From Micromonospora saelicesensis (GTDB lineage: Bacteria; Actinomycetota; Actinomycetes; Mycobacteriales; Micromonosporaceae): a stretch of 64,000 bases of DNA. The stretch covers positions 248,001-312,000 of the forward strand of contig NZ_FMCR01000001.1 of assembly GCF_900091575.1 (NCBI RefSeq). Direction: 5' to 3'. Below the pieces are notes generated by a model that did not search any database, was not told where the DNA came from, and saw only the letters and a list, made by a program, of their open reading frames with translations. The position numbers and the translations under genes were made by a program. Shown in pieces: positions 2,906 to 7,456 of this stretch. How positions within the stretch are numbered: position 1 is the stretch's first letter; every line of letters starts with the position of its first letter.

Positions 2906-3694
2906 TCAGACCTCGCCGAGCGCGTCGATGTCGCGCATCTCCTCCGCCGTGAGCGAGAAGTGGAAGACGTCGAAGTTGGCGCTGATCCGCTCCGGGGTCA
3001 CCGACTTCGGGATCACCACGATCTCGTGGTCGATGTGCCACCGCAGCACCACCTGCGCCGGGGAGACGCCGTGCGCGGCGGCAATCCTGGTCAGCACCGG
3101 GTCACTGAGGTCACTGGTCTTGAACGGGCTGTACCCCTCCAGCACCACGCCCCGGTCCCGGTGCTCGGCGTGCCGCTGCCGGTCGTACAGCGACGGGCTC
3201 CACCGGATCTGGTTGACCGCCGGGTTCTCCTCGGTGGACTGGATCAGCTCGTCGATCTCCGCGGTGCTGTAGTTGCTCACCCCGACCGCCCGGGCCAGGT
3301 TCTCGTCCCGGGCGGCGAGCAGCTCGCGCCACAGCGGGATGCTGTCCCCCGGCGACGACGGCGGCCAGTGGATCAGCCAGAGGTCCACGTGCTCGACGCC
3401 GAGCGCCTCCAGGCTGGCCTCCAGCGTCGCGCGCTCCCGGCCCACCCGGTCCGGCGGGATCTTGGTGGTGATGAAGAGGTCCTCCCGACGCAGCCCGCTC
3501 TCCCGTACCGCCCGGCCGACCTCCCGCTCGTTGCCGTACACGGTGGCGGTGTCGAGGTGCCGGTAGCCGGTGTCGAGCGCGGCCAGCACGGCGTCGTAAC
3601 CGGCCTGGCCGGTGGCCTGCCAGGTGCCGAAGCCGAGCAGGGGCATCCGCACGTCACCGGGGAGCAGGGCGGTGGGCTGGTCGGTGAGGTCCAT
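2906..3694 (-). CDS. aldo/keto reductase (AKR5-like)
   Basis: A 262-residue NADPH-dependent aldo/keto reductase of the 2,5-diketo-D-gluconate reductase type. The catalytic tetrad is visible in order: Asp and Tyr in LDTATVYGNE, Lys in FITTKIPP, and His in LWLIHWPP. The cofactor-binding IPKSVTPERI loop is near the C-terminus. ATG 3694 is chosen because the protein begins MDLTDQPTALLPG and matches the family length; the longer open frame upstream is on the strand opposite the next gene and carries no domain. The substrate cannot be predicted. Two more aldo/keto reductases occur at 38.6 and 43.7 kb. Confidence 0.93.
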   Translation of the reverse strand: MDLTDQPTALLPGDVRMPLLGFGTWQATGQAGYDAVLAALDTGYRHLDTATVYGNEREVGRAVRESGLRREDLFITTKIPPDRVGRERATLEASLEALGVEHVDLWLIHWPPSSPGDSIPLWRELLAARDENLARAVGVSNYSTAEIDELIQSTEENPAVNQIRWSPSLYDRQRHAEHRDRGVVLEGYSPFKTSDLSDPVLTRIAAAHGVSPAQVVLRWHIDHEIVVIPKSVTPERISANFDVFHFSLTAEEMRDIDALGEV

Positions 3695-3788
3695 GAGGTC
3701 CGTTCTACCCCGCCGCGCCCCCGGCCGCCGAGCGAACCGGACACTCCGGCGTCCAGCGCACCGGTCCGGTTTGCCCGAGAATGCCTGT

Positions 3789-4832
3789 GTGACCGACCGG
3801 CTGGACGAGTACCGGCGACGACGGGACGCGGCCCGCACGCCCGAGCCGGTGCCGTCGGAGAGCCCGCTGCCGGCCGGCCCCGACGCCGCCCGCTTCGTCA
3901 TCCAGCAGCACCACGCCCGCAGCCTGCACTGGGACCTGCGCCTGGAGCACGAGGGGGTGCTCGCGTCCTGGGCGGTGCCACGCGGTCTGCCCCGCGATCC
4001 GGGTCGCAACCACCTCGCCGTGCACACCGAGGACCACCCGATGGAGTACCTCGACTTCGCCGGTGAGATCCCCGCCGGTGAGTACGGCGGCGGCCGGATG
4101 CTGATTCACGACCAGGGCACCTACCGCTGCGAGAAGTGGCGCGACGACGAGGTGATCGTGACGCTCTCCGGTGAGCGGACCGCCGGCCGCTACGTCCTCT
4201 TCGCCACCGGAGGACGGGACTGGATGGTCCGCCGCACCGACCCCGCGCCGCCGGGCTGGACGCCGATGCCGGATCTGGTCCGACCAATGCACAGCACCCC
4301 GGCCGCCGGGCTCCCCCGCGACCGCGCCGCCTGGGGGTACGAGCTGCGCTGGGACGGCGTCCGGGCGATGGCGTACGTCTCCGGCGGGCGACTGCGGCTG
4401 CTCTCCGAGACCGACGAGGAGATCACCGGCGGGTACCCGTGGCTGCGCGCGATGGCCGAGGCGCTCGCGCCCACCGAGGCGGTGCTCGACGGTGTGCTGG
4501 TCCGCATCGACAGTGCCGGGCGGGTCCGCCCGGTCCGGCCGGCCACCGGCAGCCGGGTCCCCGCCGGCGCCCAGTACCTGATCGTCGACCTGCTCTGGTT
4601 GGAGGGCGTGAGCAGCGTCGACGTGCCGTACGCGCAACGCCGGGAGCTGCTCGATGGGCTGGTCTTGTCCGGTACGCACTGGCAGACTCCGCCGTGGTTC
4701 CCGGGCGCGGGCGACGAGGCCCTGCGTGCCGGGCGGGAACAGGGCCTGCCGGGCGTGGTCGCCAAGCGACTGGACTCGGTCTACCAGCCGGGGCGGCGCA
4801 GCCGGCACTGGCAGAGCATCGACGCGGTGTGA
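3789..4832 (+). CDS. LigD-like 3'-phosphoesterase fused to a degenerate ATP-dependent ligase domain
   Basis: The 347-residue protein starts at GTG 3789 (VTDRLDEYRRRRDAARTPEP). Residues about 30-160 form the 3'-phosphoesterase domain of LigD, with FVIQQHHARSLHWDLRLE, AVHTEDHP and EIPAGEYGGG carrying its metal and phosphate ligands. The rest matches the LigD nucleotidyltransferase domain, but every ligase motif is altered. KWDGVR is RWDGVR, losing the AMP-accepting Lys; the motif III Glu is Val in VLDGVLV; the motif IV Glu is Pro in PGVVAKR; the protein ends at HWQSIDAV without an OB-fold. The phosphoesterase looks intact while the ligase is probably inactive. It is followed by threonine synthase on the same strand. 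Confidence 0.85.
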   Translation: MTDRLDEYRRRRDAARTPEPVPSESPLPAGPDAARFVIQQHHARSLHWDLRLEHEGVLASWAVPRGLPRDPGRNHLAVHTEDHPMEYLDFAGEIPAGEYGGGRMLIHDQGTYRCEKWRDDEVIVTLSGERTAGRYVLFATGGRDWMVRRTDPAPPGWTPMPDLVRPMHSTPAAGLPRDRAAWGYELRWDGVRAMAYVSGGRLRLLSETDEEITGGYPWLRAMAEALAPTEAVLDGVLVRIDSAGRVRPVRPATGSRVPAGAQYLIVDLLWLEGVSSVDVPYAQRRELLDGLVLSGTHWQTPPWFPGAGDEALRAGREQGLPGVVAKRLDSVYQPGRRSRHWQSIDAV

Positions 4833-4846
4833 CGGCGAGGAGCAAC

Positions 4847-6037
4847 GTGTACCTGACTCACCTGGACTGCCCGCGCTGCGGCAAGGAGCACGCCGCCGAC
4901 CGGTTACAGAATCTCTGCGAGTGTGGGTCGCCGCTGCTGGCCCGCTACGACCTGCCGGCCGTGGCGAAGGCGGTCACGCCGGAACGCTTTCCGCTGCGCC
5001 CGGCCGACCTGTGGCGCTACCGGGAGGTGCTGCCGGTCGCCGATCCTCGGCACGTCACCACGCTGGGTGAGGGCTGGACGCCGCTGTTGCGGACTCCGGC
5101 GTACGGCACCGAGATCGGCATCACGGACCTGATGGTCAAGGACGAGGGGCTGATCCCGACCGGCTCGTTCAAGGCCCGGGGCGCGGCGGTCGGGGTGAGT
5201 CGGGCCCGCGAGCTGGGCGTCGAGCGGATCGCGATGCCCACCAACGGCAACGCCGGATCGGCCTGGGCCACGTACGCCGCGCGGGCCGGAATGGGCGCGA
5301 CCATCGTCATGCCGCTGGAGGCGCCGAGCATCTGCCGGCGCGAGTGCGTCGCCGCCGGTGCCGACCTGCGCCTGATCGACGGGCTGATCGGCGACGCCGG
5401 CCGGCGGGTGGCCGAGCTGATCGCCGAGTCGAACGGGGCGATCTTCGACGCCGGCACGCTGCGCGAGCCCTACCGGCTGGAGGGCAAGAAGACGATGGGG
5501 TACGAGATCGTCGAGCAGCTCGGCTGGCAGACGCCGGACGTGATCATCTATCCGACCGGCGGCGGGGTCGGTCTGATCGGCATCCACAAGGCGCTGCACG
5601 AGCTGCGCGAGCTGGGCTGGATCGGCGACAAGTTGCCCCGGCTGGTGGCGGTGCAGTCCACCGGCTGCGCGCCGATCGTGCGGGCCTTCGCCGCCGGCGA
5701 GGATCGGGCCCAGCCGTGGGCGGACGCGCACACTGTGGCGTTCGGCATCACGGTGCCGGCCCCGCTGGGCGACGAGCTGATCCTGGCGGCGTTGCGGGAG
5801 TCCTCCGGCACGGCAGTCGCCGTCGATGACGCGGACATCCTGGCCGATCTGCGGGACTTCGCCGCCCGGGAGGGGCTGCTGCTCTGCCCGGAGGGGGCGG
5901 CCTGCCTCACGGCGGCCCGGCAACTGCGCGCGGGCGGGTGGATCCGGGCCGGCGAACGAGTGGTGGTGCTCAACACCGGTGCCGGGCTGAAGTATCCGGA
6001 CACGGTCGACGTCTCCGGCGTACCAGTGATGGGGTGA
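4847..6037 (+). CDS. thrC: threonine synthase (PLP-dependent)
   Basis: A 396-residue type II PLP enzyme that would convert O-phospho-L-homoserine to L-threonine. The N-terminus has a zinc-ribbon (CPRCG and CECG) common in actinobacterial and archaeal threonine synthases. The Schiff-base Lys lies in PTGSFKARG (about residue 109), and the phosphate-binding glycine loop is GGGVGLIG. GTG 4847 is preferred because GGCGAGGAG precedes it by about 5 nt. A second GTG at 4829 would overlap the previous stop as GTGA and add six residues. Another thrC may exist beside the homoserine dehydrogenase gene elsewhere, as these standalone copies are often paralogues. A large hairpin terminates the unit. Confidence 0.9.
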   Translation: MYLTHLDCPRCGKEHAADRLQNLCECGSPLLARYDLPAVAKAVTPERFPLRPADLWRYREVLPVADPRHVTTLGEGWTPLLRTPAYGTEIGITDLMVKDEGLIPTGSFKARGAAVGVSRARELGVERIAMPTNGNAGSAWATYAARAGMGATIVMPLEAPSICRRECVAAGADLRLIDGLIGDAGRRVAELIAESNGAIFDAGTLREPYRLEGKKTMGYEIVEQLGWQTPDVIIYPTGGGVGLIGIHKALHELRELGWIGDKLPRLVAVQSTGCAPIVRAFAAGEDRAQPWADAHTVAFGITVPAPLGDELILAALRESSGTAVAVDDADILADLRDFAAREGLLLCPEGAACLTAARQLRAGGWIRAGERVVVLNTGAGLKYPDTVDVSGVPVMG

Positions 6038-6040
6038 GGT

Positions 6041-6080
6041 GACGGCGCCCCGCGGACCGGGCGGTCCGCGGGGCGCCGTC
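6041..6080. terminator. 18-bp hairpin between convergent genes
   Basis: A perfect 18-bp stem begins GACGGCGCCCCGCGGACC, with a GGGC loop and its exact complement. It occupies the gap between the threonine synthase stop and the pectate lyase stop and should terminate both transcripts. Confidence 0.9.
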
Positions 6081-6088
6081 GTGCCGGT

Positions 6089-7456
6089 CTACTGGTAGGT
6101 GATGTCCGAGGGCGAGTAGAGGCAGTTGACGCCGTCGGCGCCCTCGCCGATCTCGGTCGGCTCGCTGCCCTTCGGCACGCCCTTGTACTTCACACAGATC
6201 GAGGTCTCCCGGTCCGGGTCGCCGACGATGGTGATCCGGCTGAACCGGGCGGTGTCGCCCCAGTTGGTGTTGATGCCGGCGATCGCGTCGGTGTTCCGGA
6301 CGATCACGTTGTCGATCACGACGTGCCGCTGGTACGACGTGGAGCAGTTGCCGCAGGCGCGGTAGAGCTTGCCGGCGTTCTCCACCCGGAAGTTCTTGAT
6401 GTAGACGGTGCCCGAGCCGTTGTGCTGGAAGACCTTGTCGCTGGCGGAGCGGGCCCCGCCGCCGTCGACTGTGTACGTGGTGCCGCCGCGGAAGGTCGCC
6501 GCGTCCTCGCCGACGTCCTCCCACCAGACGTTGATCAGGGTGCAGTTGCCCTCGCAGTGCACGCCGTCGCCGGCCGGGGCGCCGATGATCACGTTGCGCA
6601 GGGTGGCGCCGGCGGCCAGTTCGAACATCGGGTCCTGGCTCTCGCTCTGCCCGCCGTCACCGATGCCGTAGTAGCGCTTGAGCCCACCGTCGAAGGAGCC
6701 GGAGACCGGGATCGTGGCGTCCACCTTCTGGCTGCCGGTGGGTGTCGGCCAGCCAGCGGGCGGAGGTGTGGTGGTCGGCGGCGGCGTGGTGGGTGGCGGA
6801 GTGGTCGTCGGTGGCGGTGTGGTCGGGGTGCCGCCGCCGGACGAGTCGACCAGCACGTCGTCGAAGCCGCCACTGGCGTACGCGGTGACCAGGCCGATCC
6901 GGCCCGCACCGGCCAGGCTGTTGCTGCCGGACGCGATCTGGGTGCCGTTGACGAAGCCGCGGATGGTGCTGCCGCTGGTCTCGATGCGCACTGTGTACCA
7001 GGTGCCGGTGCCGATGCCCAGCGCGGCGGAACCGATCGCCGTGACGGAGCTTCCATTGACCGCCTGGAGCTCGGCCCGACCGGAGCCGAGCAGGGCCAGC
7101 CGGTACATCTTGGTGCTGCTGGTGGAGCGGGCGGCGAGCCCGACCAGGGCGCTGGACGAGCCGAAGCTCGTCGGCCTGACCCGGGCCTGCACGGAGTAGT
7201 CGGTCCAGCTGGTCTGGCCGGCGAACTGGCGGGCCAGCTCACTGCCGGCGTTGGACTGGTTGAGCACGCCGGAGCCGTCGACGGTCCAGGTGCCGCCCGA
7301 CTTGGACCAGCCGGAGGTGTTGCCGTCGTTGAAGTCGTCGCTGAAGACGGTGGCCGCGAAGGCCGAGGTCATGCCGGCGGCGAGGGCCGCCGCGGTCACC
7401 CCGGCGCCCACCGCCAGCAGGAGTGGTCGGCGGCCGGAGAGTCGTCTTTTCTGCAC
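6089..7456 (-). CDS. secreted pectate lyase (PL3 type) with N-terminal beta-sandwich module
   Basis: A 455-residue exported enzyme. The signal peptide (VQKRRLSGRRPLLLAVGAG..., ending near SAFAA) is followed by a concanavalin/LamG-like module (about 35-215: FSDDFNDGNTSGW, WYTVRIETSG, GGFDDVLVD). A long repeated Pro/Thr linker (TPPPTTT) comes next, then a PL3 pectate lyase domain (about 245-455: VDATIPVSGSFDGGLKRYYG, GDGVHCEGNCTLINVWWEDVGEDAAT, VFQHNGSGTV). It should cleave polygalacturonate by beta-elimination, needing calcium. GTG 7456 is chosen because GGAGGAC lies just before it and the signal peptide begins there. The gene sits behind its own palindromic operator, paralleling the cellulase. 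Confidence 0.93.
   Translation of the reverse strand: MQKRRLSGRRPLLLAVGAGVTAAALAAGMTSAFAATVFSDDFNDGNTSGWSKSGGTWTVDGSGVLNQSNAGSELARQFAGQTSWTDYSVQARVRPTSFGSSSALVGLAARSTSSTKMYRLALLGSGRAELQAVNGSSVTAIGSAALGIGTGTWYTVRIETSGSTIRGFVNGTQIASGSNSLAGAGRIGLVTAYASGGFDDVLVDSSGGGTPTTPPPTTTPPPTTPPPTTTPPPAGWPTPTGSQKVDATIPVSGSFDGGLKRYYGIGDGGQSESQDPMFELAAGATLRNVIIGAPAGDGVHCEGNCTLINVWWEDVGEDAATFRGGTTYTVDGGGARSASDKVFQHNGSGTVYIKNFRVENAGKLYRACGNCSTSYQRHVVIDNVIVRNTDAIAGINTNWGDTARFSRITIVGDPDRETSICVKYKGVPKGSEPTEIGEGADGVNCLYSPSDITYQ

What the first reader, a model, noticed from the sequence alone, without database searches (positions are those of the whole stretch)
3789..4832. LigD-like phosphoesterase fused to a ligase domain with all catalytic residues lost
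The phosphoesterase motifs are intact, but the adenylation Lys is Arg (RWDGVR), the motif III Glu is Val (LDGVLV), the motif IV Glu is Pro (PGVVAKR), and the OB-fold is missing. Loss at several independent motifs while the domain stays in frame suggests retention as a DNA- or partner-binding scaffold rather than random decay. Such a pseudo-ligase could steer 3'-end processing in double-strand-break repair.
Basis: partly seen in the sequence, partly recalled or inferred. Interest (0 to 1): 0.55.

Follow-up and report, generated by a model that had tools for sequence, protein, structure and literature searches.

The report
Conserved repair nuclease with dead ligase
A soil bacterium and its relatives keep a protein that joins a DNA-end-cleaning enzyme to a DNA ligase domain that has lost its chemistry; selection preserves that domain, probably as a docking or binding part in mending broken DNA rather than as debris.

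Summary
Window 3789-4832 (+) encodes a LigD 3'-phosphoesterase (PE) domain with its critical residues intact, fused to a well-folded ligase nucleotidyltransferase (NTase) domain that ends where the OB-fold should start. The genome is Micromonospora-like. This is not isolated decay. Of 156 related proteins aligned, 103 lack the nucleophilic Lys. None of these has the motif IV Glu, the first motif V Lys or an OB-fold; the 53 with the Lys have them wherever their sequence is complete. The dead domain is under purifying selection (dN/dS 0.32, against 0.25 for the live NTase of the same genus). The form arose at least twice. Loss falls mainly on phosphate- and metal-handling residues; Glu185, Arg192 and Lys326, aligned with adenine and ribose contacts of mycobacterial LigD, are kept in 103 of 103. 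The genome also has Ku, an intact ligase and POL together at another locus, without PE. Best reading: a non-catalytic docking module bringing PE to Ku-bound breaks. That step is inferred, and many Ku-bearing relatives lack the gene. A retained adenylate-binding role is the boldest alternative. New variant of a known kind; six searches of open papers listed no description of it.

The parts
3789..4832 (+). Whole gene: PE-pseudoligase, 347 aa, GTG start
   Evidence: open frame; Pfam and NCBIfam; start column shared by the 79 of 81 rows that reach it
3888..4235 (+). 3'-phosphoesterase (PE) domain, residues 34-149; critical residues kept (arm residues R12 and E19 lie just upstream, 3789-3887)
   Evidence: structure match to 3p43, Z 21.1
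4263..4823 (+). Pseudo-ligase NTase domain, residues 159-345, no OB-fold after it
   Evidence: structure match to 6nhx, Z 24.8
4347..4349 (+). Codon of R187, in place of the nucleophilic Lys (K481 of mycobacterial LigD)
4494..4496 (+). Codon of V236, in place of the motif III Glu (E530)
4749..4751 (+). Codon of P321, in place of the motif IV Glu (E613)
4815..4823 (+). Codons of S343-D345, in place of the motif V Lys pair (K635, K637)
   Evidence: numbering agrees with chain range

Best explanation
The gene encodes a two-domain accessory protein of bacterial non-homologous end joining (NHEJ). Its PE domain most likely keeps the LigD 3'-end-healing activity (Mn-dependent 3'-phosphatase and removal of 3'-terminal ribonucleotides). 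Its C-terminal domain is a ligase NTase fold that should no longer form a ligase-AMP intermediate or seal DNA, and is kept as a non-catalytic docking module that places PE at Ku-bound double-strand breaks, while sealing and filling are done by separate LIG and POL proteins encoded next to ku. Shown by sequence: architecture, pattern of loss, conservation, purifying selection, at least two origins, Ku/LIG/POL elsewhere in the genome. Inferred: PE activity, lack of ligase activity, docking to Ku or DNA.
For: PE residues kept in all close rows that cover them. Pseudo-NTase dN/dS 0.315 (1080 pairs), against 0.248 for the active NTase and 0.299 for the neighbouring reductase. Well-predicted fold (mean pLDDT 88.8; Z 24.8 to 6nhx). 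The truncated form without Lys arose at least twice. Ku, LIG with OB-fold and POL together at another locus, no PE within the 14 kb fetched there. In 300 family genomes the two-domain gene is in 187, all with Ku, and in 0 of 13 without Ku. Ku core binds the LIG domain of mycobacterial LigD (PMC9638933, passages) and a Ku core-LIG contact is inferred in B. subtilis (PMC13201618, passages). PE is stable without a ligase domain elsewhere (stand-alone archaeal PE structures), so fold support is not obviously needed.
Against: No binding or activity was tested. The gene is dispensable: 100 of the 287 Ku-bearing family genomes lack it by the count, and 6 of 19 re-searched Micromonospora genomes hold only fragments. 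It is not beside ku or POL in any of the 80 close loci. Ku-binding was shown for whole LIG domains with the OB-fold, which this protein lacks. The Ku association is not corrected for kinship (8 of the 13 Ku-less genomes are one genus). The pseudo-NTase is less constrained than PE (0.315 against 0.183). A few distant copies have damaged PE motifs (L212, L213, L215).
Confidence: 0.5

Rival explanations
1. Adenylate reader: the pseudo-NTase still binds an adenosine group non-covalently (ATP, AMP, or the AMP cap of a 5'-adenylated DNA end left by abortive ligation) and uses that to gate or aim PE.
For: Residues aligned with adenine and ribose contacts are unchanged in all pseudo rows (E185, R192, K326: 103 of 103; also after thinning to 10 clusters) while phosphate and metal residues are lost; the same split is seen in L143, an independent origin.
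Against: E530-equivalent, another ribose contact, is kept in only 38 of 103. Structural columns with no nucleotide role are kept as well, and E185 and K326 could pair with each other. No ligand was tested or modelled.
Confidence: 0.2
2. Fold-support remnant: the NTase shell is kept only because it stabilises PE or the protein, with no partner or ligand.
For: Retained columns include many structural ones; constraint is weaker than in PE; confident PE-plus-NTase model (pTM 0.80).
Against: Stand-alone PE domains exist (3p43, 3p4h, 5dmp), as does a PE-only frame in this genome (L003). Invariant charged pocket residues are not explained by shell packing alone.
Confidence: 0.22
3. Isolated decay or a pseudogene.
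For: Decayed copies exist in some relatives: G153 in shifted frames, G162, G217, G096 and G296 with C-terminal pieces, G191 with mostly the PE part.
Against: Open frame in 80 of 80 retrieved relatives, 78 of them full length, same truncated form, dN/dS far below 1 in both domains.
Confidence: 0.03

Closest known systems
PE-LIG part of POL-PE-LIG LigD (NCBIfam NF007210; mycobacterial type)
   Same: Same domain order; residues 2-341 match model positions 298-654; NTase fold Z 24.8 to mycobacterial LigD 6nhx
   Different: No POL, no OB-fold, no nucleophilic Lys, motif Ia Arg, motif IV Glu or motif V Lys
Two-domain actinobacterial PE-LIG proteins of about 480-500 aa (for example L117-L123, L205, L207)
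   Same: PE followed by NTase, 51-60% identical over the matched part
   Different: Those have KWDG, both Glu, motif V Lys and an OB-fold of about 120 residues; some lie beside POL and ku
Stand-alone archaeal PE enzymes (3p43, 3p4h, 5dmp)
   Same: PE fold and residues
   Different: No ligase-like domain in those chains
Catalytically inactive human DNA ligase IV with a structural role in synapsis
   Same: A dead ligase still supports end synapsis and repair (PMC10858965, passages)
   Different: Dead form there is an experimental mutant; other organism, partners and domains; an analogy only

Membership tests
LigD 3'-phosphoesterase (PE) superfamily | Match over curated cut-off | tested here: met
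   PF13298 126.8 bits, cut-off 31.1; TIGR02777 156.8 bits, cut-off 144
LigD 3'-phosphoesterase (PE) superfamily | Metal- and phosphate-binding residues (H42, H48, D50, R52, H84, Y88 of P. aeruginosa LigD) | tested here: met
   H41, H47, D49, R51, H83, Y87, present in every close row that covers them (list from PMC8656161)
LigD 3'-phosphoesterase (PE) superfamily | Mn-dependent 3'-phosphatase/ribonuclease activity | not testable with these tools
   needs an assay
ATP-dependent DNA ligase (LigD LIG) | Nucleophilic Lys in KxDG | tested here: not met
   R187; 0 of 81 close rows have Lys
ATP-dependent DNA ligase (LigD LIG) | Motif IV Glu and motif V Lys | tested here: not met
   P321, S343 and D345; motif IV Glu and first motif V Lys 0 of 103 in the pseudo rows
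ATP-dependent DNA ligase (LigD LIG) | C-terminal OB-fold domain | tested here: not met
   no PF04679 match listed; frame ends after the motif V Trp; 0 of 103 pseudo rows have such a tail
ATP-dependent DNA ligase (LigD LIG) | NTase fold | tested here: met
   PF01068 61.2 bits, cut-off 26.2; Z 24.8, rmsd 2.1 over 183 residues to 6nhx
Full LigD (POL-PE-LIG equivalog NF007210) | Score over the curated cut-off with all three domains | tested here: not met
   371.7 bits, cut-off 989; no POL

The most novel reading that the evidence does not exclude
A ligase turned into a reader: having shed phosphate chemistry and the OB clamp but kept its adenosine pocket, the domain recognises an adenylate (ATP or AMP as a signal, or the AMP cap on a stalled 5'-adenylated DNA end) and directs the attached 3'-end nuclease to such ends, a step I saw described for bacterial NHEJ in none of the papers listed or read here.
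Probability: 0.17. Interest if true: 0.7.

Novelty: new variant of a known kind. Interest (0 to 1): 0.45.

Why it matters
Bacterial NHEJ is usually described as Ku plus one multi-domain LigD. Here PE, POL and LIG are on separate proteins, and the PE protein carries a ligase-like domain that selection keeps without its chemistry. If it docks or reads, it is a natural separation-of-function version of LigD with which one can ask how PE reaches breaks and which part of LIG contacts Ku. It also warns that proteins of this kind may be annotated as DNA ligases although they very probably cannot seal DNA (their names in public records were not checked).

Tried and rejected
Isolated decay: rejected. 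A simple split of one duplicated gene (one copy losing PE, the other losing LIG): the NTase tree does not put this genome's LIG next to the pseudo-ligases, but the deep branch is weak (57/91), so this stays open. One origin of all pseudo forms: rejected for L143 (a group chosen after seeing the tree); one origin for the Micromonosporaceae, f17 and f32 forms is not rejected (p-AU 0.286), and the larger tree needs only 2 changes, so I claim at least two origins. NHEJ neighbours of the window gene: none; ku and POL were found in 0 of the 80 close loci, and the flanks are an aldo/keto reductase and a PLP enzyme. Promoter and terminator scan of 3600-6200: nothing found. Damage to PE by K66->R and R76->H: dropped, because active actinobacterial PE-LIG proteins mostly have NH (some NR) where P. 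aeruginosa has KR and some have PRG for PKG, and the review section does not list K66 or R76; their effect was not tested. Literature: six searches ran on this topic; no listed title or abstract start describes a conserved PE-pseudoligase. Only open-licence PubMed Central papers are held, so this is weak evidence of absence. PMC5124664 (passages) reports stand-alone LIG and POL genes and none to one NucDom gene per Streptomyces genome; PMC7719229 (passages) classes split-domain NHEJ as non-conventional; the passages seen do not describe this form.

Rows dropped or special: one search kept the best 80 of 582 relatives. L084 and L085 start at residue 80. L231 duplicates L223 and was left out. 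L212 and L220 were left out of the tree (broken or cut PE) but are among the 103. Named and unnamed collections overlap (two identical pairs). Pseudo and active are defined by column 187, so the Lys count of the 103 is by definition; the other columns and the OB tail are the independent tests. The 53 active rows include 15 LIG-only proteins. L132 and L144 are cut by contig ends. One search read plus-strand matches only and was redone. In one search gene presence was typed from the tables (best E up to about 1e-80; G153 counted as lacking, G089 as having the gene); one search scored only the first candidates per genome, so its absences are less sure, though 19 of the 25 lacking genomes of the genus were re-searched with all candidates scored. 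The dN/dS pairs are not independent of one another.

Full report
WHAT IS THERE. The window (G000:C2:248001-312000) is from a 7.1 Mb genome whose closest named relatives for this gene are Micromonospora. The frame at 3789-4832 (+) is as described. It holds a LigD 3'-phosphoesterase (PE) domain and a ligase NTase domain, with no OB-domain match, and fits the PE-LIG stretch of a POL-PE-LIG LigD model (residues 2-341). An AlphaFold2 model from an alignment of 79 sequences (the window protein and 78 loci) has mean pLDDT 88.8 and pTM 0.80. Its NTase part superposes on mycobacterial LigD (6nhx, Z 24.8, rmsd 2.1 over 183 residues, chain 453-639) and its PE part on 3p43 (Z 21.1, rmsd 1.4 over 120). The chain stops just after the motif V Trp: the OB-fold is absent and the rest is predicted to fold well.

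PE DOMAIN. The residues named as critical in a LigD review (PMC8656161, section 8) are present, and each is invariant in the 79 to 81 of 81 close rows that cover it. Among the 22 further pseudo rows some differ: L143 has T, H, D and F for E19, Q39, E81 and Y87 (its active sister L141 shares T, D and F); L203, L204 and L206 have H for Q39, L203 also C for S60; L212, L213 and L215 have broken motifs; L220 and L175 lack their starts. PE is therefore very likely active in the window protein, but not in every distant copy.

LIGASE DOMAIN. Column 187 (K481 of mycobacterial LigD) splits them into 53 with Lys and 103 without. Active against pseudo: R501 53 of 53 against 1 of 103; E613 52 of 52 (one gap) against 0 of 103; K635 52 of 52 (one gap) against 0 of 103; OB tail 51 of 53 (two cut by contig ends) against 0 of 103; E530 53 of 53 against 38 of 103; R629 52 of 52 against 84 of 103. 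Unchanged: E479, G484 and R486 in 53 of 53 and 103 of 103, K618 in 52 of 52 and 103 of 103, W482 in 51 of 53 and 103 of 103. The pattern holds after thinning to 65, 32, 17 and 10 pseudo clusters. According to the review (section 6) K481, R501, E613, K635 and K637 act on ATP phosphates or metal, E479 and K618 touch the adenine and R486 the ribose. The loss thus falls mainly on the chemistry. Not all of it does: A169, F248 and F266, conserved in active rows, are also mostly gone. And structural columns (P166, D234-G235, D267, R284, L288, Y332, W341) are kept, so retention of the pocket does not by itself prove nucleotide binding.

SELECTION AND HISTORY. Pairwise dN/dS (Nei-Gojobori, overall dS 0.05-0.8): pseudo-NTase 0.315 (1080 pairs), PE 0.183 (1081), active NTase of the Ku-locus ligase in the same genus 0.248 (104), its OB 0.150 (104), Ku core 0.102 (153), downstream PLP enzyme 0.199 (903), upstream reductase 0.299 (1035). 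The pseudo-NTase is constrained nearly as much as a working one. In trees built without columns 187, 207, 236 and 321 the main Micromonosporaceae pseudo rows form one clade (100/100 with 19 rows; 100/99 with 29 rows). L143 of family f20 is nested among active f20 proteins; forcing all 25 pseudo rows of the first tree together is rejected (p-AU 1.4e-81), while joining the Micromonosporaceae, f17 and f32 rows is not (p 0.286). So there were at least two origins. Four further pseudo rows of the same family (L214, L217, L221, L222) group with f17 with moderate support (84/88). Active full-length PE-LIG proteins occur in three genera of the same family (L205; L207 and L209; L210, L211 and L223). 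Where the gene is lost it decays visibly: of 19 Micromonospora genomes re-searched (of 25 counted as lacking it), 6 hold fragments, in five of them between the same reductase and PLP-enzyme genes with both present (L147-L151; in G153, L146, likewise).

GENOME CONTEXT. Ku (PF02735), a divergently encoded LIG with KWDG and OB-fold (PF01068 and PF04679, 345 aa) and POL (PF21686, 304 aa) lie together at C2:954-958 kb; no PE match lies in the 14 kb fetched around them. A 119-aa PE-like frame lies on C4. In 29 class-level loci with short flanks, POL lies beside or is fused to 11 of the PE-LIG genes and Ku lies beside 4; in the 80 close loci neither is found. In two f17 genomes (G315, G429) ku, LIG and POL lie together without PE in the stretch fetched, and a PE-pseudoligase lies elsewhere, as in Micromonospora. 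Ku is present in 111 of 111 genomes of the genus. In 300 family genomes, 287 with Ku, the two-domain gene (pseudo or active) is counted in 187, all with Ku, and in 0 of the 13 without Ku (Fisher p 2e-6); 8 of those 13 are one genus, so kinship weakens this. Equally, 100 Ku-bearing genomes lack the gene, so NHEJ does not require it. The reductase upstream and PLP enzyme downstream are conserved in Micromonospora and some near genera but not in Actinoplanes and others: the conserved unit is the protein, not the neighbourhood.

HOW IT MOST LIKELY WORKS. Ku and its core domain bind the LIG domain of mycobacterial LigD (PMC9638933, passages including part of the abstract), and a B. subtilis study infers a Ku core-LIG contact (PMC13201618, passages). 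Where LIG, POL and PE are separate proteins, a ligase-shaped domain fused to PE could give the nuclease its own way to the break. I give this docking model 0.5; rivals are a fold-support remnant (0.22), an adenylate-binding reader (0.2) and decay (0.03). Catalytically inactive human ligase IV supports synapsis (PMC10858965, passages): such a role is possible in principle, which does not show that it applies here.

COMPARISON WITH KNOWN THINGS. It is a member of the PE superfamily. It fails defining features of an ATP-dependent ligase and of full LigD, so it should not be filed as either. I call it a PE-pseudoligase, a new variant of LigD-derived proteins. Six searches of open PubMed Central papers listed none that, by title or abstract start, describes it.

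Noticed in passing
L003:1519-1878 (-), contig C4 of the same genome: A 119-aa PE-only frame (PF13298, 73.5 bits) that, aligned by eye, has P and H where the critical E82 and Y88 of P. aeruginosa LigD stand; possibly a diverged or inactive PE.
   Followed up: partly
window 4830-4850: The next gene (PLP enzyme, PF00291, GTG at 4847) starts 14 bases after the stop of the PE-pseudoligase, and a similar short gap is seen in many Micromonospora loci, which suggests one transcript.
   Followed up: partly
L148, L149, L150, L151: In four relatives only the 3' end of the gene (about 80-110 codons) survives next to the PLP-enzyme gene, as if that end carried expression signals for the downstream gene.
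   Followed up: no
L143 and L141 (family f20): L143 is a pseudo form nested among active PE-LIG proteins; both rows have T, D and F at three critical PE positions (E21, E82, Y88 of P. aeruginosa LigD), so PE may also be altered in this branch.
   Followed up: no
L186, L194 (family f19): Two LIG-only proteins have KQDG in place of KWDG while keeping the other motifs checked.
   Followed up: no
L002:2162-3187 (+): This genome's Ku has a long Lys/Ala-rich C-terminal tail that weakly matches a histone H1-like family (HC2, 26.1 bits, below its cut-off of 40).
   Followed up: no
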